DNA of 33,245 nucleotides from Salinivirgaceae bacterium. Lineage in GTDB: Bacteria; Bacteroidota; Bacteroidia; Bacteroidales; Salinivirgaceae. The notes beneath the pieces were generated by a model that searched no databases, had not been told where the DNA came from, and was given only the letters and a program-made list of their open reading frames with translations. Made by a program: the position numbers and the translations under genes. Positions within the stretch are counted from its first letter, which is position 1, and each line of letters opens with the position of its first letter. The stretch is taken from the NCBI GenBank assembly GCA_028709085.1, contig JAQVXQ010000006.1, positions 1 to 33,245 on the forward strand. The letters run 5' to 3'. Positions 1-8,749 of the stretch are shown piece after piece.

Positions 1-99
1 AATGTAACGTTGAATCATGAGCGGAGTGACGGGAGGATTGATGATGTTGTAAAGCAGTGATAGGGCCGCAACAATGCCCCAGAACCATAAATGAGCATC
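1..99 (-). pseudogene. MtgA-like transglycosylase N-terminal fragment, start lost
   Basis: In the frame next to the plug-protein frame, bases 99 to 1 encode a hydrophobic helix (FWGIVAALSLLYNII) followed by NPPVTPLMIQRY. That is the membrane anchor plus the Asn-Pro-Pro-x-Thr-Pro-Leu-Met signature I associate with Bacteroidota monofunctional peptidoglycan transglycosylases (MtgA). Two consecutive TAG codons precede it at 105-100, and there is no ATG, GTG or TTG in frame before the Met inside the signature. A nearby ATG at 98-96 is in a third frame and would need a one-base insertion to reach this frame. The gene has therefore lost its start by a rearrangement or indel, or the assembly is wrong at this point. 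Only about 33 codons are visible, so the family call is tentative. Confidence 0.4.
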
Positions 100-799
100 C
101 TACTATTCCCCCGTCTTCAGTTATCTTAGTAATAACGTTAACAACAGCACTGTAGGATGCAAATCTTGCAGGAGGCATATCGTAATGCTCAATTTTAGCT
201 ATGTCTTCAGAACATAAAGCAATAAGTTCTCTTTCTGAGGCATTCATCCCATTTAATAGTAACTTAATCTGTTTACCTCCTGTTGATGAAATCGTATTAT
301 TTACATTATCGATATTAATTGATGGGATTATATTTAAGAGATCTAGCGAATTTCGAGTTGTTTTGCTATCTTCATCAGTGACTATATAAGTCACTTTATC
401 AATACTTCTTTGAATGCGTGTTGCAATAATGTCAACACCTTCAAGCTTGTTTATTACATTAGGTAACTCAATGTTCAAACCTAAAATATCGGTACCCCCT
501 ACCTTTATTTTTTCAGAAAAGGGTTTAAATCCTATGCATGAAACATTTATAGAATAATACCCATTAGGAATTTTATCTAACTCGTAATTCCCTGCAAGGT
601 CGGATACTGTCGCTGTTTTAATTTGGGTAGTGTCCTTTATATCAAACAACCAAATATTTGCAAAAGGAACAGATTCTTCTATGGAATCTGAATTAGTATA
701 TACCTTGCCTGTTATTTTATTTTGAGAATATGTCACAAAGACTGTAAATTGCGATAAAAATAAAACCAGCAAAAAGTTGTGTTTTATTATTATTTTCAT
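1..799 (-). CDS. Secreted carboxypeptidase-regulatory + TonB-plug protein, truncated, runs off window
   Basis: The frame is open from the ATG at 799 to the window edge. It begins with a signal peptide (MKIIIKHNFLLVLFL...), then a CarboxypepD_reg-like beta-sandwich (about residues 28-110, with PFANIWLF, SDLAGNYELDKIPNGYY and SCIGFKPF), then a TonB-plug-like segment (about 115-225) with LLNIIPSINID, IKLLLNGMNASERE, IAKIEHYDMPPARF and VVNVITK. These are the domains found before the barrel in outer-membrane beta-barrel family receptors. No barrel follows. After EDGGIVG (near base 99) the reading becomes compositionally odd, and the adjacent frame instead matches an MtgA-like N-terminus, so the gene is probably broken there. 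It starts 8 nt after the preceding plug-like gene and looks like the last gene of the radical-SAM peptide operon. Domain calls are from sequence pattern only. Confidence 0.6.
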   Translation of the reverse strand, partial: MKIIIKHNFLLVLFLSQFTVFVTYSQNKITGKVYTNSDSIEESVPFANIWLFDIKDTTQIKTATVSDLAGNYELDKIPNGYYSINVSCIGFKPFSEKIKVGGTDILGLNIELPNVINKLEGVDIIATRIQRSIDKVTYIVTDEDSKTTRNSLDLLNIIPSINIDNVNNTISSTGGKQIKLLLNGMNASERELIALCSEDIAKIEHYDMPPARFASYSAVVNVITKITEDGGIVGCSFMVLGHCCGPITALQHHQSSRHSAHDSTLH

Positions 800-807
800 T
801 TTTATTT

Positions 808-1437
808 TTATTTTACATTTAAATTTAGTATACAAGAGTACATATGTGGAGTGCATAAATTAGAAATATCATAAATATCGATACTCTGAATATTTCTAAT
901 ATTTATTTTATCAATTTCATTTTTTTTAAGGTACAAACCATTCAAAAACAAGATTACTTTTCTATTTTTATGAGTAAGTATTTTGTTTTCAAAATCATAC
1001 AGTACTTCTGGGATATGGCTCTGAATTAAAACAAAAATGTTTGTTGTGTTACTACTATTTATTGAAACTGGAATGTTGGAACTTCGATATGGAATTGTTT
1101 TGATTGTAATTTTGTTACTAAAATTACTAATAAACGGTGCTCCATCCGATTCCGGTATTACATTATAGCCTTTTGCTACCAATTCACCATTGTATTTAGC
1201 ATTTACATAATATTTTTTAGGTATCAATGATTCAAAGTAGTACATTCCTTTAAAATCAGAGAACGTAACAAATTTTGTGTTTGCTGAATCTTCAATGTCT
1301 GAAAATTCAATCTTGCTTAGAGGTAAAGGAGGATTTCCTTTTGCTAAATTAAATATCCTCCCTGAAACTTCAGTTTGTGCATATTGTACGCAAATTAGGC
1401 ACATTGCAATTATAAATAAAAAAAAATGGTTTTTCAT
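808..1437 (-). CDS. Secreted carboxypeptidase-regulatory / plug-like protein without barrel
   Basis: This is a 209-residue protein with a clear signal peptide (MKNHFFLFIIAMCLICVQYAQ). A carboxypeptidase-regulatory-like domain follows (about 24-105: VSGRIFNLAKGNPPLPLSK, FSDFKGMYYFESLIPKKYY). The C-terminal segment resembles the end of a TonB plug: RKVILFLNGLYLKKNEID, then NIQSIDIYDI, which corresponds to the usual lINGi...eI.kIevyd pattern. It stops where a receptor would enter its barrel, so it is either a stand-alone plug-type protein or an old truncation. It lies 51 nt after the radical SAM gene and 8 nt before a second protein of the same design, so all three are probably co-transcribed. 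A role in the outer membrane or periplasm, such as handling or export of the modified peptide, is inference. The exact function is not recognised. Confidence 0.6.
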   Translation of the reverse strand: MKNHFFLFIIAMCLICVQYAQTEVSGRIFNLAKGNPPLPLSKIEFSDIEDSANTKFVTFSDFKGMYYFESLIPKKYYVNAKYNGELVAKGYNVIPESDGAPFISNFSNKITIKTIPYRSSNIPVSINSSNTTNIFVLIQSHIPEVLYDFENKILTHKNRKVILFLNGLYLKKNEIDKINIRNIQSIDIYDISNLCTPHMYSCILNLNVK

Positions 1438-1488: not shown

Positions 1489-2784
1489 TCAAATTTTTAC
1501 TAATTTGTTTTCAAGGGCAAATCTATTGAAATTGTATGTAATGTGATCATCTAAAGACAAGTTAGTGTCTAAAATGCATTTTACATTTTCCCCATCCTCC
1601 AATATCTTCTGTGAACAAATTCCCGGACATGATGGTAGTAATTTGCAATCTTTACAAATTTGAGAAATGTTTGTCGCCAATCTACGAGATAAACGATCGA
1701 TATCCCAGTTAATAACACCATTGTCCATTAAAACTCCATCTGGTTTAACTTTAGCGAAATTTCGTGCAGTACATTTGTGCACATTCCCATCATAATTGAC
1801 CACTACTTCATTGAGGCAATCAGCATAACAAACACTTGATTTGGGAGTCAAAGATAAAAAATTTACAATGAATCCTTTCTCTTGAGCATAATTTGTGAAT
1901 TTAAAAATATCCGGCCAACTTATTTCAATTTGGTTTACTTGCCATATACGCATTAGGCTAAATCTCAGAAACCTTTTATCTGCAAAAGCCAAATCATCGA
2001 TAACTGAATATAGTCCTTCAAGTGCCTTTTGATGATAGTTTATTCTAACAGAAATACCATAATTTTTTAAAACAGATTGTATTTTGTTAATATTATTTAT
2101 GATTAGTTTATAAGTCGGTTTATTTGTATTTTTAAAACAACGGCTGCTATCGTGCATTATTTCATTTCCATCAAGCGTTATTTGAAAGTTAACATTAAAC
2201 CTTTTAAGCACATTTAGCAATTCATCCGAAATTAGGGTTGCATTAGTTGTAAATGCGACCGATATTTTAATTTTTTTGTCCTTAGTGAATTTTTCAATCT
2301 GGTTTAATATCGTGATAACAATATTTGTTTTTAGCAAAGGTTCTCCTCCAAAAAAACTTAACCATAATTCAGAGAATTGTTCTTCTTTGTATTTTAATTT
2401 GATGTGGTTTAGCAGTTTTTTAATAATTGTATCATCCATTTCTGAATCAGGAACGTGATCTTCATAGCAATACCAACACCCCAAATTACAGTCAAGTGTT
2501 GGATTTATTATTACTTGGTAAATTTTTGAAGTGAACCTTCTATTAAACAGCAGATTCAAATAATATGATTTTTCATCAAAAGCTCTCGGTATTATAAACC
2601 CGTTTTCCTTTAGTGTGTTATATAATTTAGGGTTTGACGTGTATAATTCTTCGAGATTCTCTTCTTTCGCCCGAAATTCATTAAACAAGTCTTGGTTTAA
2701 AATTAAATATGCATCTGCCAAAGCATTATAAAGCATAATAGCCTTTCCCTCTGGTACATAATGATTATAAAAGCTACTTTTCAT
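1489..2784 (-). CDS. Radical SAM/SPASM peptide maturase
   Basis: This is a 431-residue radical SAM enzyme. The [4Fe-4S]-SAM motif is CNLGCWYC (Cys99, Cys103, Cys106), followed by the SAM-contacting FFGGEPL at 144-150. The C-terminal SPASM domain is complete: Cys319, Cys323, a Gly-x4-Cys at 333-338, the C-x2-C-x5-C-x3-C signature at 377-390, and a final Cys403. It should therefore bind two auxiliary iron-sulfur clusters. Residues 1-90 resemble a leader-binding extension, but I cannot assign an RRE with certainty. SPASM enzymes of this layout install thioether or carbon-carbon crosslinks on ribosomal peptides. The gene for a GG-leader, cysteine-rich peptide lies 162 nt upstream on the same strand, the expected substrate. 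The ATG at 2784 is followed immediately by the conserved N-terminus. The bond it forms cannot be read from sequence. Confidence 0.9.
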   Translation of the reverse strand: MKSSFYNHYVPEGKAIMLYNALADAYLILNQDLFNEFRAKEENLEELYTSNPKLYNTLKENGFIIPRAFDEKSYYLNLLFNRRFTSKIYQVIINPTLDCNLGCWYCYEDHVPDSEMDDTIIKKLLNHIKLKYKEEQFSELWLSFFGGEPLLKTNIVITILNQIEKFTKDKKIKISVAFTTNATLISDELLNVLKRFNVNFQITLDGNEIMHDSSRCFKNTNKPTYKLIINNINKIQSVLKNYGISVRINYHQKALEGLYSVIDDLAFADKRFLRFSLMRIWQVNQIEISWPDIFKFTNYAQEKGFIVNFLSLTPKSSVCYADCLNEVVVNYDGNVHKCTARNFAKVKPDGVLMDNGVINWDIDRLSRRLATNISQICKDCKLLPSCPGICSQKILEDGENVKCILDTNLSLDDHITYNFNRFALENKLVKI

Positions 2785-2907: not shown

Positions 2908-2936
2908 AAGAAGGACACATGAAATGCATCCTTCTT
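2908..2936 (-). terminator. Hairpin after precursor gene, possible attenuator
   Basis: An 8-bp perfect stem (AAGAAGGA at 2908-2915 with TCCTTCTT at 2929-2936) sits 11 nt beyond the stop codon of the peptide precursor. On the minus strand it is followed by a T-rich but not uninterrupted tract. Position and weak tail suggest partial termination, which would give more precursor than maturase mRNA. This is inference from structure. Confidence 0.45.
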
Positions 2937-2946
2937 ATTGAAAATA

Positions 2947-3135
2947 CTAGCTGCAAGGACAGTTTGAACCACAATTATTCGTACATTGACATTGAAAAAC
3001 GTTAATTTCATCAAGTTTGCCTAAAAGCCAACTCCAAAGTCCACCACCCTTAATCATTAACATTTCTTCGTCGTTTTCGAAACGCTCAATAATTTGTGGG
3101 TTAAGCTTAACCAATCTTTTTTCTTGTTGTTCCAT
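2947..3135 (-). CDS. GG-leader, five-cysteine RiPP precursor peptide
   Basis: This 62-residue peptide has a charged leader (about residues 1-31) ending in MIKGG, matching the double-glycine leaders of Bacteroidota radical-SAM natural-product precursors. The predicted 31-residue core starts GLWSWLLGKLDE, an amphipathic stretch. It ends in a cysteine cluster with Cys at 49, 51, 55, 59 and 61, giving the near-symmetric pattern CxC-x3-C-x3-CxC with Asn, Gly and Ser spacers. The gene lies directly before a radical SAM/SPASM gene on the same strand and 139 nt after a LytTR regulator gene, which supports it being a real coding sequence despite its size. Cleavage after Gly31 would require a C39-type peptidase or transporter, and none is in this window. 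Product structure and activity are unknown. Confidence 0.8.
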   Translation of the reverse strand: MEQQEKRLVKLNPQIIERFENDEEMLMIKGGGLWSWLLGKLDEINVFQCQCTNNCGSNCPCS

Positions 3136-3274: not shown

Positions 3275-3646
3275 TCATGGACGGTTTTGTTCGTTGTGGA
3301 AAAATTCAAGTAATTCAGAACATCGTCTTCTCGAAACTTTAAGAATGGTATTTTCGCGGAGCATAATTTGGCGCTTCTTGCAATCGAAAGAGGTTACGTT
3401 TTTGAGATTTATTATACAATTGCGATCGATGCGCATGAATTGCACATCCAACAAAGCATGTTCGAACGATTTTAAGCTTCTTGAGACTGTAATGGGATTT
3501 TCTTTATCAATGAGTTTAATAAATGAAAGATAGCCTTCGCAGTAGATATGAGAAATATTTTCGATCTCTACTTGGGTGTATTTGCCTTTTTCGCTGAGTA
3601 TAATTTTCTGTTGATTCTGACAATTAAAATCTTTTTTCATATGCAT
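3275..3646 (-). CDS. Stand-alone LytTR DNA-binding regulator
   Basis: The 123-residue protein is essentially one LytTR domain (about residues 14-118). It has the typical strand pattern and signature residues: IYCEGYLSFIKL, the SRSLKSFE helix entry, FMRIDRNCIINLKNV (the conserved R-x-h-r-S-x-lvNl region) and ILKVSRRR. There is no receiver or membrane domain, and a TGA lies 7 codons upstream of the first ATG in frame, so it is not a longer response regulator. ATGs at 3646 and 3640 are both possible starts. LytTR proteins bind paired repeats through a beta fold and often control peptide or bacteriocin production. Here the gene precedes the peptide precursor on the same strand and probably controls it (inference). 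Confidence 0.85.
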   Translation of the reverse strand: MHMKKDFNCQNQQKIILSEKGKYTQVEIENISHIYCEGYLSFIKLIDKENPITVSRSLKSFEHALLDVQFMRIDRNCIINLKNVTSFDCKKRQIMLRENTILKVSRRRCSELLEFFHNEQNRP

Positions 3647-3738
3647 GGCGGGTTTAACTTTGATTCATTTTGTATTGCTTTTCTTCATTGTAATGTTACT
3701 ATTTTCTGATAATAACTTAAAGACGGACACCAACAATG

Positions 3739-3763
3739 TATATATATATATATATATATATAT
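3739..3763. repeat. TA dinucleotide microsatellite, about 12.5 units
   Basis: An uninterrupted alternating TA run lies 93-117 bp upstream of the LytTR start codon. If the -7 box at 3799-3806 is used, the run lies in the 5' leader of that transcript. Such tracts can change length by slippage. Confidence 0.9.
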
Positions 3764-3798
3764 CAGTTTTATAACTAACTTGGAGTTTTTAAACAATG

Positions 3799-4110: not shown

Positions 4111-4440
4111 TGGTTCTTCGCTTAAACTAGTGGATTTTAAAAAAGTATTCATTATTGTACAGAGAATTCCAAATAATGATTACGAGATTCTTCACTCCAC
4201 TACGTTACGTTCAGAATGACAGGTGCTTTCGAGGAAAAAAAGAGGAAGAGAAGGCGGCGAAGCCGCCTTCTCTTCCTCCCTCATCTGTCCGACAGGAATG
4301 TCATCCTGAGCGTAGCGAAGGATCTCTAAAACTTCATTTTAACTAAACGACATTGATTTAGAAATGTGAGAAATTTCAGCGTGATGGTAAATTTTGGAAG
4401 AGCCTAATTGACCAAATCCACTAGTTTTGGCGAAGAGCCA
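4111..4440. mobile_element. MITE-like element with 27-bp terminal inverted repeats
   Basis: Bases 4111-4137 and the complement of 4414-4440 match at 24 of 27 positions, including a shared ACTAGTGGATTT inner end. Both ends are bordered by the same short string GTTTTT (4105-4110 and 4441-4446), which could be a target-site duplication but is low-complexity. There is no transposase. The hairpin-cored repeat at 4183-4326 lies inside. A 68-codon open frame covering the right half (with KTSGFGQLGSSK) looks like repeat sequence, not a gene. Confidence 0.45.
4183..4326. repeat. Hairpin-cored dispersed repeat, copy A
   Basis: The left arm (4183-4221, CGAGATTCTTCACT...TCAGAATGACA) and right arm (4299-4326, TGTCATCCTGAGCG...GGATCTC) are imperfect inverted copies of each other. 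The middle holds a 17-bp perfect stem, GAGGAAGAGAAGGCGGC at 4242-4258 pairing with 4262-4278, around a GAA loop. The arms match the widespread bacterial tGTCATcCTGAGCG...GAaGGATCT interspersed motif. The central stem sequence is unique to this copy. Confidence 0.75.
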
Positions 4441-4504: not shown

Positions 4505-4876
4505 TTAATGTCCACAACCTGAACAAGAGTGGCAACCGGAGTCATCGCATCCGCTATCGACGTTGTATTGTAATGGCAATTGTTCGTGATTCCAGTTTTT
4601 CATTCCTCCCAATAGATATACCACATTGATATAGCCATTCTGCTTCAGCATTTGTGTAGCGTTGGGCGATAAACTTTCGTCGAAATCGGCAATAATTAAT
4701 CGTTTTGCAACTTCATATTTGTGCATTGCATCGGTTAATTTCCGTAAAGGAACATTGACCACATTTTCAACGTCGAACGTCACAAATTCGAAATCCATGG
4801 GTTCGCGAATATCTAACATTAGAGCTTTTCCGGTTTCTAGCTCAAATTGGGCGTCTTTGGGTGTTATTGAGTTCAT
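4505..4876 (-). CDS. Rhodanese-fold protein lacking catalytic Cys, Cys-rich tail
   Basis: This is a 123-residue rhodanese-like domain: LDIREPMDFE, NVPLRKL, and GYINVVYLLGGMKNW near the end are standard landmarks. The active-site loop that normally holds the persulfide cysteine reads IIADFDESLSPNA, so Cys is replaced (Asp64 or nearby) and sulfurtransfer by that residue is not expected. The C-terminal tail instead carries Cys110, 115, 118 and 121 plus two His, a possible metal or iron-sulfur site. I chose the ATG at 4876, not the in-frame ATG at 5011, for two reasons: a perfect TATATTTG -7 box lies between them, and the upstream part encodes only hydrophobic sequence that overlaps a repeat arm. 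The gene is bracketed by two copies of a dispersed repeat. Confidence 0.75.
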   Translation of the reverse strand: MNSITPKDAQFELETGKALMLDIREPMDFEFVTFDVENVVNVPLRKLTDAMHKYEVAKRLIIADFDESLSPNATQMLKQNGYINVVYLLGGMKNWNHEQLPLQYNVDSGCDDSGCHSCSGCGH

Positions 4877-4901
4877 ATCAGTTGGGTTGTTTATGGGGTT
4901 G

Positions 4902-4909
4902 CAAATATA
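4902..4909 (-). promoter_or_regulatory. -7 box of the rhodanese-like gene
   Basis: The minus strand reads TATATTTG, a full match to TAnnTTTG, 26 bp before the ATG at 4876. The predicted transcript would start near 4895, which excludes the longer open frame starting at 5011. Confidence 0.5.
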
Positions 4910-4998
4910 AATGTTTGTTTCTGTAATGAAAAATAGAGAAGCGATTGTTTGAAATATTTTTATTTGTAAGATGATAGTCAAAATTAATATAATGATTA

Positions 4999-5151
4999 CG
5001 AGATCCTTCATTTCACTGCGTTACATTCAGGATGACACTGTTTTTGCTGTTCGGATGTGGGAGGTCGGTGGCGGCACTGCCGCCACCGACCCCCACATCT
5101 CTAATTGCGATTTGCAGACTTTGACATCCTGAGTGTTAGCGAAGGATCTCG
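4999..5151. repeat. Hairpin-cored dispersed repeat, copy B
   Basis: The left arm at 4999-5037 (CGAGATCCTTCATTTCACTG...GGATGACA) and the right arm at 5122-5151 (TGACATCCTGAGTG...GGATCTCG) are the same inverted arms as copy A. The core is a long stem at 5054-5099 of about 20 bp with one bulged A and an ACT loop, GC-rich (GGTCGGTGGCGGC). Its sequence is unrelated to the core of copy A. It ends 19 bp from the stop codon of the LuxE-family gene. Confidence 0.75.
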
Positions 5152-5169
5152 TAGAGCATATTGGTTATT

Positions 5170-6141
5170 CTAATATACAAGCAAATTACATCCTCGAACA
5201 TCGCTGTAGTCGAACCGGCCTAATATTTCAAAACTGTTTGCGCCGTTCTTTTTTCCAATATCGTTGGTTTGAATAAATGCACACGAAAATTGGTTTGCTA
5301 AATCGATAATATTCACTCCTCCTGTGTTATTCTCGCTGGGCTTAAGTGGGTTATAAGGGTCATACAGCGACACTTGCATCCATGGTGGAGTTTCAAAAAC
5401 CCCATTGCCTTTTGAGTATGCTTGGCTCAACAGTTCGGTCATTCCATATTCACTATGGATATGCGACACGCCCAGCGATTTGCAAAGTATGGTATGTAGT
5501 TCTTCTCTGGGTACTTCAGCTCTGCGCCCTTTCATGCCGCCAGTTTCCATCACAATGGTCGATTTTAGTTGCATCGAAAATTGCTCGGCAAAATCCAACA
5601 AGGCAAACGAAACGCCCATTAAAATGGTTGGAATACTATTTTGTTCATTAACAATTAGTTGCTTATGCAAATCGTCGATGTTATTTAAGTAGAATCCACT
5701 TTCGGAATATCGGCTCATTTGAATCATCGACTCGGCCATATAAATTAGGGACGAACCTTCTCGTTCGAGGTACGAAGGCAATAGAAATAGAAAGCAAAAA
5801 TCCGCCGGATCGCCATAAAAATGGCGGAATGCATTTATAAAGCTTTGTTCATAGAGCTTTAGGTCGGCCACGGCATGGGTCGATTGTCCGGTTCCTGTTG
5901 TGGAGCTTGATTTGAAAAGAATTTCAGGTTTGTTTGCTCCTCGATAAATAGAGTGCGATTTAAAAAATTCCACCGGTAAAAATGGGATTTCGTTGAGTTT
6001 TGAAACTTTATTGGGGTCTATATTTAGATTCTCGATAAATTGCTTGTACAGTTCTACTTCGTTTGCCTGCGTCTTAAAAAGGGAAATAGCATGGTCTTGA
6101 AAGTCGTTCCTGTTGTTTTTCGTTCGATTGAAAATGTCCAT
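5170..6141 (-). CDS. LuxE-family acyl-protein synthetase / acyltransferase
   Basis: This 323-residue protein has the LuxE (acyl-protein synthetase) layout: FFKSHSIYRG near the N-terminus, the phosphate-loop-like KSSSTTGTGQS (about 78-88), METGGMKGRR in the middle, SEYGMTELLSQ (the acyl-adenylate motif, about 232-242) and GRFDYSDVRGCNLL at the C-terminus. The length is near the family norm of 320-370. LuxE proteins activate a carboxylic acid as an acyl-AMP and pass it to an enzyme cysteine. Bacteroidota carry many copies without lux genes, often near cell-surface or lipid genes. No luxC, luxD or acyl carrier protein gene adjoins it here, so the substrate is unknown. The start at 6141 is the only sensible ATG. 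The gene ends just before repeat copy B. Confidence 0.85.
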   Translation of the reverse strand: MDIFNRTKNNRNDFQDHAISLFKTQANEVELYKQFIENLNIDPNKVSKLNEIPFLPVEFFKSHSIYRGANKPEILFKSSSTTGTGQSTHAVADLKLYEQSFINAFRHFYGDPADFCFLFLLPSYLEREGSSLIYMAESMIQMSRYSESGFYLNNIDDLHKQLIVNEQNSIPTILMGVSFALLDFAEQFSMQLKSTIVMETGGMKGRRAEVPREELHTILCKSLGVSHIHSEYGMTELLSQAYSKGNGVFETPPWMQVSLYDPYNPLKPSENNTGGVNIIDLANQFSCAFIQTNDIGKKNGANSFEILGRFDYSDVRGCNLLVY

Positions 6142-6240
6142 AATTAGATACTTTATGGCACTCCTAACAATTTTGAAGCCATAATGTTATCCATCAGGAG
6201 AGATAGAGTGACAGTAAATTGTATTTCGGGGGAGATTTTA

Positions 6241-6272
6241 TAAAAAAAAGCCGATTATTAACCGGCTTTTTT
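6241..6272 (-). terminator. Rho-independent terminator after tRNA-Val
   Basis: An AAGCCG/CGGCTT stem flanked by runs of A and T forms a symmetric hairpin with at least 7 T on the minus strand. It starts 2 nt beyond the tRNA 3' end and may also act on plus-strand transcripts. Confidence 0.85.
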
Positions 6273-6274
6273 TG

Positions 6275-6349
6275 TGGGTCGTACTGGATTCGAACCAGTG
6301 ACTTCTACCCTGTCAAGGTAGCACTCTAAACCAACTGAGCTAACGACCC
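6275..6349 (-). tRNA. tRNA-Val(GAC)
   Basis: On the minus strand GGGTCGT pairs with ACGACCC in the acceptor stem, with discriminator A. The D arm reads GCTCAGTTGG. The anticodon stem CTACC/GGTAG holds the loop TTGACAG, giving anticodon GAC (Val). The T arm contains GGTTCGAATCC. The CCA end is not encoded. A consensus -7 box lies just upstream and a terminator follows directly, so it is a single-gene transcript. Confidence 0.95.
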
Positions 6350-6359
6350 AAAGGGAGCA

Positions 6360-6367
6360 CAAAGATA
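6360..6367 (-). promoter_or_regulatory. -7 box of tRNA-Val
   Basis: The minus strand reads TATCTTTG, matching TAnnTTTG exactly, 10 bp before the mature tRNA 5' end, the distance expected for a tRNA promoter. The 330 bp from 6368 to 6697 show no gene. Confidence 0.6.
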
Positions 6368-6697
6368 TAAAAATTCTTAAATGAAGCGGCTAATTGATGT
6401 GCTTTTGATAAATTCTTTTTTTTGAGGGGGTTAAAATAGAATCTATAAAATAGGAAAACTAAAGAGATATTTGTTGTGTTATGTTTTCGAAAAATGAATA
6501 AGGTATGAAACCTCGTTTTTTTTTGCATATGCACTTTGTGTGACAACTATTTGTTGAATTATCGGTAAGGAATAAATTTAGTTTCGTCGCCTTTTATTTT
6601 AGTAATGATTATTTCCTTTGTTTTTGCAAAGTGTTTTGTTTAAATGGATCGTTTTTATTTCTTGTAATTGGACAACAAACGGTTAATCTTGTTCTTC

Positions 6698-8749
6698 TTA
6701 AAACTTCATTTTTTGAATTCTTATTGCATTTAAAATTGCCAATAAGGCAACACCAACATCTGCAAAAACTGCTTCCCACATGGTAGCCAAACCTCCTGCG
6801 CCGAGGGCTAAAACAATACCTTTTATTAAAAATGCCATAGTAATATTTTGCCAAACAATCCTTTTTGTTTGTTTCCCGATTTTTATTGCCATTGGAATTT
6901 TACTTGGCATGTCGTCTTGTATTACCACGTCTGCTGTCTCTATCGTGGCATCACTTCCAAGACCACCCATTGCAATACCAACACTGCTCAATGCCACTAC
7001 TGGTGCGTCATTTACGCCATCGCCTACAAAGGCTACGGAGCCGCTTTTTGCCATTATTTCTCTCACTTTATTTACTTTGTCCTCGGGCAATAAATCGCCA
7101 AAAGCATGAGCAATTCCAAGTTGTTGAGCCACAAATTGAACAACCGTATTTTTGTCTCCACTCAACATTGTGGTTTTTACTCCCAGTGCTTTTAGTTTGT
7201 TTATAGTAATTTGGGCATCTTCTTTTATGGAATCTGCAATGGTCAAAAACCCTACAAATTTCTGATCGTAAGCAATGGCAATTAATGTATAAACTATTGT
7301 TGTTGGATCGATGTTGTATTCAATGGAAAACATATCCATTAGCTTTAAATTCCCGACCAATAATTCTTTCCCATTAATGTGCGCTTTTAATCCATGACCT
7401 GGAAATTCCTCCACGTTTTTAAGTTCAATTGTATTGTCAACTTCACCTACAAAATTGTGAATGGCGGTTGCAATTGGATGAGTACTTTGGTTTTCTAAAG
7501 CATTTGCCATTTGTAACATTTCCGTTTTATTGAACTCCGGTTTCAGGTTCACTTCTTGGACTTTGAAAACGCCTTCAGTCATTGTGCCTGTTTTGTCCAT
7601 CACCACATTTTTAATTGTTGCAATAATGTCTAAAAAGTTGCCTCCTTTGAATAAAATCCCATTTTTACTGGCAGCTCCAATCCCTCCAAAATAGCCCAAC
7701 GGAATACTAATTACCAAGGCGCAAGGACACGAGATAACTAAGAAAACTAACGCTCTATAAAGCCACTGACTGAAAATATAACTATCTACAAAAAAATAAG
7801 GAATGATACATATGAGCGTTGCTAAAAGGACCACAAATGGGGTGTAAATTTTTGCAAATTTTCTAATGAATAATTCGGTGGGTGCTTTTTGGGATGTTGC
7901 ATCTTGCACCAGTTGTAAAATTTTACTTAACTTACTATCGGTGTATGCGGTTGTAACTGTTACTTCTGAAATTTTGTTTAGGTTTATCATGCCTGCCAAA
8001 ACTGTTTCACCTTTCAATTTCGTGTCAGGCTTGCTTTCGCCAGTAAGTGCTGAGCTGTTGAATGTAGCATTTTCGGAAATTAACGTTCCGTCAAGACCTA
8101 GTTTTTCTCCTGCTTTGAGTTGAATGATGTCACCAATGTTTGCATCTTCAGCTTTTATGGTTTTGGTTTGGTTGTTCAGTAGTATAGTTACTTCGTCTGG
8201 TCGCAGATCAAGTAAGGTTTTGATATTCGCCTTTGCTTTTGTTACTGCAAGTGTCTGGAACACTTCACCAATGGTATAAAACAACATTACTGCTACGCCC
8301 TCAGGATATTCGCCAATGGCAAATGCTCCGATGGTAGCAATCGACATTAATAAGAATTCGGAGAATACTTCGCCTTTGCTAATGCTCCCAATTGCTTCTT
8401 TTAAAACTGGAAAACCAACGGGTAAATAGGCTAAAATATACCAACTAATTCTTACCCAATCTGTAAACCAAGTTTGCGGAAAAAAGTGATCGAAATTAAT
8501 GGCAAGCCCCAATAGAACAAAAGAAATAACAGCCGGTAAAAACACTTTAAACATATTGTCGTCACCAATGGAATGGTCGTGGTCGTCTCCGTGGGTCTTT
8601 ACATTTTTAAAAATAGGTTCATTTGTGGCACAACAACCAGCTTCTTTGTTTCCTTTTTTTAGGTTTTTGTTTGCAACGGAGTTTATTTTCTCTTCTAAAG
8701 TGCAACACAGTTGCTTGCCACTTTTGTCATATATATGTTTATGTTCCAT
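6698..8749 (-). CDS. P1B-type heavy-metal efflux ATPase (Zn/Cd/Pb type)
   Basis: This is a 683-residue P-type ATPase. Membrane segments 1-4 precede the actuator motif SALTGESKP (about 233-241). The metal-site motif in the sixth helix is SCPCALV (340-346), the phosphorylation site DKTGTMTEG starts at Asp385, the nucleotide-domain STHPIATAI is near 420-430, and the hinge GDGVNDAPVVALSSVGIAMG is near 600. The SCPC form with the following helix pattern fits ZntA/CadA-type exporters of Zn2+, Cd2+ and Pb2+. The N-terminus lacks a classical HMA domain (no GMxCxxC). It has two CC pairs (15-16, 39-40) and a His/Asp-rich stretch (HGDDHDHS, 53-60), presumably metal-binding. No ArsR or MerR regulator adjoins it. 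The substrate is inferred from family motifs. Confidence 0.92.
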   Translation of the reverse strand: MEHKHIYDKSGKQLCCTLEEKINSVANKNLKKGNKEAGCCATNEPIFKNVKTHGDDHDHSIGDDNMFKVFLPAVISFVLLGLAINFDHFFPQTWFTDWVRISWYILAYLPVGFPVLKEAIGSISKGEVFSEFLLMSIATIGAFAIGEYPEGVAVMLFYTIGEVFQTLAVTKAKANIKTLLDLRPDEVTILLNNQTKTIKAEDANIGDIIQLKAGEKLGLDGTLISENATFNSSALTGESKPDTKLKGETVLAGMINLNKISEVTVTTAYTDSKLSKILQLVQDATSQKAPTELFIRKFAKIYTPFVVLLATLICIIPYFFVDSYIFSQWLYRALVFLVISCPCALVISIPLGYFGGIGAASKNGILFKGGNFLDIIATIKNVVMDKTGTMTEGVFKVQEVNLKPEFNKTEMLQMANALENQSTHPIATAIHNFVGEVDNTIELKNVEEFPGHGLKAHINGKELLVGNLKLMDMFSIEYNIDPTTIVYTLIAIAYDQKFVGFLTIADSIKEDAQITINKLKALGVKTTMLSGDKNTVVQFVAQQLGIAHAFGDLLPEDKVNKVREIMAKSGSVAFVGDGVNDAPVVALSSVGIAMGGLGSDATIETADVVIQDDMPSKIPMAIKIGKQTKRIVWQNITMAFLIKGIVLALGAGGLATMWEAVFADVGVALLAILNAIRIQKMKF

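What the first reader, a model, noticed from the sequence alone, without database searches (positions are those of the whole stretch)
2947..3135. Near-symmetric CxC-x3-C-x3-CxC core with an amphipathic start
The five Cys (49, 51, 55, 59, 61) are mirror-like in spacing and separated by Asn, Gly and Ser, while the first part of the predicted core (GLWSWLLGKL) is amphipathic with two Trp. This differs from the six-Cys SCIFF/ranthipeptide pattern I know. An odd number of Cys suggests thioether links with one free or metal-bound Cys, or alpha-carbon acceptors at Asn, Ser or Gly.
Basis: partly seen in the sequence, partly recalled or inferred. Interest (0 to 1): 0.6.

Follow-up and report, generated by a model that had tools for sequence, protein, structure and literature searches.

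The report
Bacteroidota Cys-rich radical-SAM peptide precursor
This is the gene for a small cysteine-rich peptide that a neighbouring radical-SAM enzyme most likely cross-links before it is cut and exported; it belongs to a scattered Bacteroidota family whose cysteine patterns vary widely, so the mirror-like pattern seen here is not a fixed signature.

Summary
The 62-aa ORF and its five Cys (49, 51, 55, 59, 61) are real. It is very probably a RiPP precursor. A GG leader is followed by a Cys-rich tail, a 13-bp intercistronic hairpin and an intact radical-SAM/SPASM maturase. Next come a short TBDT-like protein and the start of an Oar-type outer-membrane TBDT, cut at the contig end. Contig C175 of the same genome carries the rest of that TBDT and a C39-peptidase ABC exporter; the two contig ends share 103 bp at 98% identity. 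About 49 Bacteroidota loci show the same precursor-maturase-(TBDT)-(exporter) layout.

The pattern is not conserved. In one precursor from each of 31 loci, Cys number ranges from 2 to 11 (up to 12 in a second paralogue) and spacing varies. The nearest relative keeps only C-x3-C-x3-C; the next keeps only the two outer CxC pairs. Family-level rules do exist: no adjacent Cys, an excess of CxC and C-x5-C, and odd and even counts equally common. Odd counts argue against simple disulfide pairing. The 'amphipathic' start is merely hydrophobic.

The best reading is thioether cross-linking of the ranthipeptide type (inferred), then GG cleavage and export. It is a new variant of a known kind.

The parts
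2947..3135 (-). Precursor peptide gene, 62 aa, GG leader and Cys-rich core
   Evidence: Single copy in its genome; leader homologous to the G052 precursor, E 6.8e-4; lies directly before the maturase gene as in most relatives
3043..3135 (-). Leader, residues 1-31, ending ...EEMLMIKGG; predicted C39 cleavage after G31 (I at -4, M at -7)
   Evidence: Sequence; compare ...DEMLLVKGG in G052; C39-PCAT present in the genome
2953..2991 (-). Cys cluster CQCTNNCGSNCPC, residues 49-61
   Evidence: Sequence
2908..2936 (-). Intercistronic RNA hairpin (13-bp stem) between the precursor stop and the maturase start; probably sets the precursor:maturase ratio
   Evidence: -15.0 kcal/mol, z -4.7; hairpins of unrelated sequence lie in the same place in G052, L003, L027, L031, L044 and others
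1489..2784 (-). Radical-SAM/SPASM peptide maturase, 431 aa, with N-terminal RRE-like domain (residues about 1-65)
   Evidence: Pfam Radical_SAM; best NCBIfam TIGR04463 148 bits, under its cut-off of 525; CX3CX2C and seven SPASM Cys invariant or nearly so in 32 homologues; AlphaFold pLDDT 90.9, N-terminal strand-strand-strand-helix-helix-helix; Foldseek top hit CteB 5why/5wgg
808..1437 (-). 209-aa protein: signal peptide, CarboxypepD_reg-like and plug-like region, no barrel
   Evidence: Aligns over its whole length with residues 26-241 of the neighbouring TBDT ORF, E 1e-11
2..856 (-). N-terminal part of an Oar-type TonB-dependent-receptor-like outer-membrane protein, cut by the contig end (the likely start ATG lies slightly inside this ORF)
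   Evidence: CarbopepD_reg_2, E 1.2e-12; 35% identity to G052 TBDT residues 13-231; remainder at G000:C175:150-1868
3275..3646 (-). Stand-alone LytTR DNA-binding protein, possible local regulator
   Evidence: Pfam LytTR, E 8.9e-13; a homologue lies upstream of the precursor in L037 too, E 3e-6, but in no other locus fetched

Best explanation
The ORF is the precursor of a ribosomally made, post-translationally modified peptide. The leader (residues 1-31) is bound by the RRE-like N-terminal domain of the adjacent radical-SAM/SPASM maturase. The maturase links core Cys sulfurs to carbons of nearby non-Cys residues, most likely side-chain carbons as in ranthipeptides, giving several small thioether rings at the C-terminus. 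A C39-peptidase ABC transporter then cuts after GG and exports the roughly 31-residue product, and the co-encoded Oar-type TBDT deals with the outer membrane as exit, receptor or immunity partner. Shown here: the gene, the leader homology, the intact maturase, the conserved gene set, the exporter in the same genome, and the variability of the Cys pattern. Inferred: that modification occurs, that it is thioether, which residues accept, that the leader binds the RRE, and the biological role (probably an antagonistic or signalling secreted peptide).
For: Maturase next door with all radical-SAM and SPASM Cys and a confident fold closest to CteB, a thioether-forming maturase. Sequence similarity to the Cys-rich, CefB and PapB maturase families. 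In about 30 homologous maturase loci a Cys-bearing leader peptide was recognised next to the maturase. TBDT in 27 loci and ABC transporter in 26 loci despite short flanks. In this genome a PCAT 67% identical to that of G052 lies behind the missing half of the TBDT on contig C175, whose end overlaps the window end. Odd Cys counts in 16 of 31 precursors and no adjacent Cys at all (0 against 21.8 expected) fit one acceptor per Cys rather than Cys-Cys pairing.
Against: No characterised product is known to me for this subfamily, and the maturase scores far below the NCBIfam cut-offs listed (148 against 525 bits for the best), so chemistry cannot be transferred with confidence. No fixed acceptor residue is visible: Asn is enriched 3-4 residues before Cys family-wide (z 4.6 and 3.7), but this peptide fits that only partly. 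The link between C27 and C175 rests on a 103-bp overlap at 98% with divergent ends. The CxC motifs could equally suit metal binding.
Confidence: 0.72

Rival explanations
1. The peptide is a sactipeptide: the maturase links Cys to alpha carbons (for instance of Asn, Ser or Gly), as the first reader also allowed.
For: SPASM maturases make both types; Asn, Gly and Ser dominate the Cys region family-wide (15.8, 11.9 and 9.2% of residues).
Against: The closest solved structure is CteB, a gamma-thioether maturase (link type from PMC10352776). PapB and QhpD models score better than the sactisynthase models listed (PapB 1e-29, QhpD 6e-22, RumMC 2e-13), though radical-SAM family models overlap broadly.
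Confidence: 0.14
2. A secreted Cys-rich metal-binding peptide or metallophore: CxC pairs bind Cu(I), Zn or Fe and the TBDT takes the loaded peptide back up.
For: CxC is over-represented (32 against 18.5 expected); L027 has metallothionein-like CGC runs; a TBDT is co-encoded in many loci.
Against: All loci carry a radical-SAM maturase (by construction, as the search was built on it). Other members have only 2-3 Cys or widely spaced Cys. No metal genes recur among the neighbour families found; the P-type ATPase at 6698-8749 in the window is separated by unrelated genes.
Confidence: 0.08
3. An unmodified class II bacteriocin-like peptide with disulfides, exported by the PCAT; the maturase neighbour is incidental.
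For: GG leader and C39 exporter; weak NCBIfam hit to lactococcin G-beta (E 0.007, 16.6 bits against a cut-off of 37), over the leader end and the LWSWL stretch.
Against: Precursor-maturase adjacency recurs in about 30 diverged loci. Half of the peptides have odd Cys numbers.
Confidence: 0.05

Closest known systems
TIGR04463 (rSAM_vs_C_rich) and NF038107 (CefB, Cys-every-fifth) radical-SAM/SPASM maturases
   Same: Best-scoring NCBIfam models for this maturase; all 32 relatives match both at E 1e-20 or better; by name their targets are Cys-rich peptides
   Different: 148 and 141 bits against cut-offs of 525 and 600; the window Cys spacing is 1,3,3,1, not every fifth
Ranthipeptides / SCIFF (CteB-CteA, thermocellin; PapB-PapA, freyrasin)
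   Same: RRE-like domain plus radical SAM plus SPASM; CteB is the closest solved structure; Cys-rich C-terminal core
   Different: Not six Cys in 45; no Cys-x3-Asp motif; GG leader with PCAT and TBDT; linkages unknown
Bacteroidales radical-SAM RiPP clusters with GG leader and PCAT (PMC10352776)
   Same: Radical-SAM maturase, GG-motif precursor, C39 PCAT, outer-membrane protein in some clusters
   Different: The word TonB does not occur in that survey, and this peptide type was not described in the passages read
Oar of Myxococcus xanthus (PMC6434023)
   Same: CarboxypepD_reg domain in front of a TBDT barrel; [quoted passage not shown]
   Different: Oar carries a recognised Plug domain and TonB box; the proteins here hit OMP_b-brl_3 and no Plug model; no export role has been tested for them

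Membership tests
Radical-SAM/SPASM-dependent RiPP | Radical-SAM maturase with CX3CX2C and SPASM Cys next to a short leader-bearing peptide gene | tested here: met
   C99, C103, C106 plus SPASM C319, C338, C377, C380, C386, C390 invariant in 32 sequences, C403 nearly so; precursor adjacent
Radical-SAM/SPASM-dependent RiPP | RRE (PqqD-like) leader-binding domain | tested here: inconclusive
   N-terminal three strands then three helices, pLDDT about 95, consistent with an RRE; no RRE model was hit and binding was not tested
Ranthipeptide | Cys to beta- or gamma-carbon thioether links | not testable with these tools
   Needs mass spectrometry or NMR
SCIFF (six Cys in forty-five) | Six conserved Cys and TIGR03974 maturase above cut-off | tested here: not met
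   Five Cys; TIGR03974 61 bits against 425
TIGR04463 maturase family | Score above curated cut-off of 525 bits | tested here: not met
   148 bits
CefA/CefB Cys-every-fifth | CefB above cut-off of 600 bits and regularly spaced Cys in the precursor | tested here: not met
   141 bits; spacing 1,3,3,1
PapB-type ranthipeptide | PapB model above 340 bits and Cys-x3-Asp motifs | tested here: not met
   103.5 bits; no Asp in the Cys region
PCAT-exported GG-leader peptide | GG leader and a C39-peptidase ABC transporter in the cluster | tested here: met
   ...MIKGG; PCAT homologous to the Peptidase_C39 transporter of G052 at G000:C175:1881-4085, next to the missing half of the TBDT; on a separate contig, joined by inference
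Lactococcin G-beta class IIb bacteriocin | NF038034 above cut-off of 37 bits | tested here: not met
   16.6 bits

The most novel reading that the evidence does not exclude
A Bacteroidota family of hypervariable Cys-rich RiPPs made by an unnamed SPASM maturase family that tolerates almost any Cys arrangement (no CC, favouring CxC and C-x5-C), installing an uncharacterised thioether topology such as tightly spaced CxC rings, with a dedicated Oar-type TBDT serving as the outer-membrane exit of the C39 exporter.
Probability: 0.2. Interest if true: 0.62.

Novelty: new variant of a known kind. Interest (0 to 1): 0.36.

Why it matters
The clusters pair a Cys-rich precursor, a SPASM maturase, a C39 exporter and an Oar-type TBDT. 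None of the precursors scanned matches a precursor model in NCBIfam, and the maturase falls below the cut-off of every NCBIfam family listed. One maturase family acting on cores with 2 to 12 Cys in very different spacings would be a natural test of substrate tolerance and of what sets acceptor choice. The recurring TBDT makes it testable whether such receptors act in export or in self-recognition of RiPPs in Bacteroidota.

Tried and rejected
Closer precursors: same family and genus give none, and one order-wide search of 393 genomes gives only G052 as a convincing match, the other two weak hits lying in long unrelated frames. Families of G052 and G337 give no further maturases. Amphipathic-helix idea: rejected by hydrophobic moment. 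Mirror spacing as a conserved motif: rejected. NCBIfam precursor models: no relevant hit for nine precursors of relatives. LytTR regulator as a conserved partner: seen in only two loci, so not claimed. A P-type metal ATPase nearby was considered as support for metal binding and set aside, since it does not recur. Library papers: TIGR04463 with radical SAM is not mentioned in any held paper.

Full report
Observation. The ORF at 2947-3135(-) is real and reads MEQQEKRLVKLNPQIIERFENDEEMLMIKGGGLWSWLLGKLDEINVFQCQCTNNCGSNCPCS. Cys are at 49, 51, 55, 59 and 61, spacing 1,3,3,1. The peptide occurs once in its genome. It sits directly upstream, on the same strand, of a 431-aa radical-SAM/SPASM protein (1489-2784), itself the only match of its kind found in the genome.

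Is the small ORF a gene? The strongest evidence comes from a different genome. A search of 393 genomes of the same order with the 62-aa peptide finds G052:C112:538-693 (E 6.8e-4, 41% identity). Independently, the best relative of the maturase in that set is G052:C112:771-2051 (40%, E 1.6e-98), immediately downstream. The G052 precursor is MKEKNLKIKLSPKMMEKFEKDEMLLVKGGVTTSSPYTDTYNGVCFGTCNIYCPKTPTK: the leader and GG site correspond, and the tail is Cys-bearing.

Family. The maturase was used to gather 20 loci from named genomes (Tenacibaculum, Aureivirga, Bacteroides, Alistipes, Muribaculaceae and others) and further loci from order and class searches, about 49 loci in all. In about 30 of them one or more short leader peptides with Cys were recognised next to the maturase; in some loci none was found, mostly where flanks were short. 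All-against-all comparison of neighbouring ORFs gives two recurring partners: a roughly 785-aa outer-membrane barrel protein in 27 loci and an ABC transporter in 26 loci. Pfam names them CarbopepD_reg_2 plus OMP_b-brl_3, and Peptidase_C39 plus ABC_membrane plus ABC_tran. These are lower bounds, since flanks were short.

The rest of the cluster. In the window, downstream of the maturase, are a 209-aa protein (808-1437) and the first part of the barrel protein (2-856), which runs off the contig. The missing part was found on contig C175 of the same genome: barrel residues from about 166 onward, then a C39 transporter 67% identical to that of G052, then a 175-aa protein. C27 and C175 overlap at their ends by 103 bp at 98% identity, beyond which both ends diverge. 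I take this as an assembly break within one operon; the join is inferred. The 175-aa protein has homologues behind the transporter in G052 and G337 and resembles part of a 432-aa ORF in the same place in L022. From general knowledge these look like short membrane-fusion (HlyD-type) proteins, but no Pfam model was hit for the G052 one.

Cys pattern. Curated precursors show 2 to 12 Cys with very different spacings. The maturase tree places the window with G052 and then G337 (supports 99/96 for both forks). Their cores are CQCTNNCGSNCPC, CFGTCNIYC and CGC-x11-CDC. So even the closest clade keeps only part of the pattern: the inner C-x3-C-x3-C with G052, the outer CxC pairs with G337. There are, however, family-wide rules: adjacent Cys never occur (0 against 21.8 expected), spacing 2 is avoided (2 against 15.5), spacing 1 (32 against 18.5) and spacing 5 (31 against 9.0) are favoured, and symmetric or periodic arrays are commoner than chance (10 of 28 against 1.2). 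CxC presence changes at least seven times on the tree. Sixteen of 31 precursors have an odd number of Cys, which argues against plain disulfide pairing. Asn is enriched 3-4 residues before Cys; this is a hint at acceptors, not a demonstration. The shuffles treat loci as independent, and relatedness among them, as well as repeats within one peptide, inflates significance somewhat.

Amphipathic start. The hydrophobic moment of GLWSWLLGKL is ordinary for its composition (59% of shuffles reach it), and the two sister peptides have more polar stretches there instead. The segment is hydrophobic, with two Trp, and specific to this peptide.

Maturase. All radical-SAM Cys and six SPASM Cys are invariant across 32 homologues and the seventh SPASM Cys (C403) is nearly so. 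AlphaFold gives pLDDT 90.9 with an N-terminal three-strand, three-helix unit consistent with an RRE. By profile and by fold the closest solved structure is CteB, whose ranthipeptide links are gamma-thioethers (PMC10352776). NCBIfam places it nearest TIGR04463 and CefB, far below their cut-offs; all 32 members match TIGR04463, CefB, Clo7bot and geopeptide models at E 1e-20 or better. By NCBI's own cut-offs it is not a member of any of the named maturase families listed.

Regulation. A 13-bp hairpin (2908-2936; z -4.7) lies just after the precursor stop. Strong hairpins of unrelated sequence occupy the same place in G052, L003, L027, L031, L044 and others. A partial terminator or stabiliser that yields more precursor than enzyme is the likely role; this is inferred.

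Mechanism. Leader binding, thioether formation on several Cys, GG cleavage and export by the PCAT, with the Oar-type TBDT at the outer membrane. A TBDT of similar N-terminal architecture is required for protein secretion in Myxococcus (PMC6434023), which makes an exit role possible; receptor or immunity roles are equally open.

Verdict. A genuine, probably functional RiPP precursor in an under-described Bacteroidota family. The specific symmetric Cys pattern is one of many and carries no special significance on present evidence.

Noticed in passing
window 808-1437(-): 209-aa protein with signal peptide that aligns over its full length with the CarboxypepD_reg and plug-like part of the neighbouring TBDT (E 1e-11) but stops where the barrel would begin: a barrel-less TBDT-like protein, or a decayed duplicate.
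   Followed up: partly
window 1-98 and L069:1-126: The ends of contigs C27 and C175 share 103 bp (98%) inside the TBDT gene and then diverge; both ends look chimeric. The start of C175 reads on the other strand like a DnaB helicase fragment (by eye).
   Followed up: partly
L052:535-13285 (G052 contig C112): Two tandem units: precursor-maturase-TBDT-truncated C39 protein, then a broken radical-SAM/SPASM gene (4923-6440), a 245-aa protein that looks like a sulfatase-modifying (FGE-like) domain by eye, a second TBDT, a full PCAT and a short fusion-protein-like ORF.
   Followed up: no
window 4170-4340 and 4990-5160: Two copies of an inverted-repeat element (ATTACGAGATCCTTC...CACTGCGTTAC...TGACA and its complement around a GC-rich palindrome), resembling short interspersed repeats.
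   Followed up: no
window 4505-5011(-): Rhodanese-domain protein with a Cys/His-rich tail (DSGCDDSGCHSCSGCGH), not part of the RiPP cluster.
   Followed up: no
L008, L015, L016 precursors: Cys about every sixth residue with Asn-rich hexapeptides; L008 weakly matches left-handed beta-helix acyltransferase models (E 0.006), so these cores may be hexapeptide-repeat-like.
   Followed up: no
window 3738-3764: TA dinucleotide run upstream of the LytTR gene.
   Followed up: no
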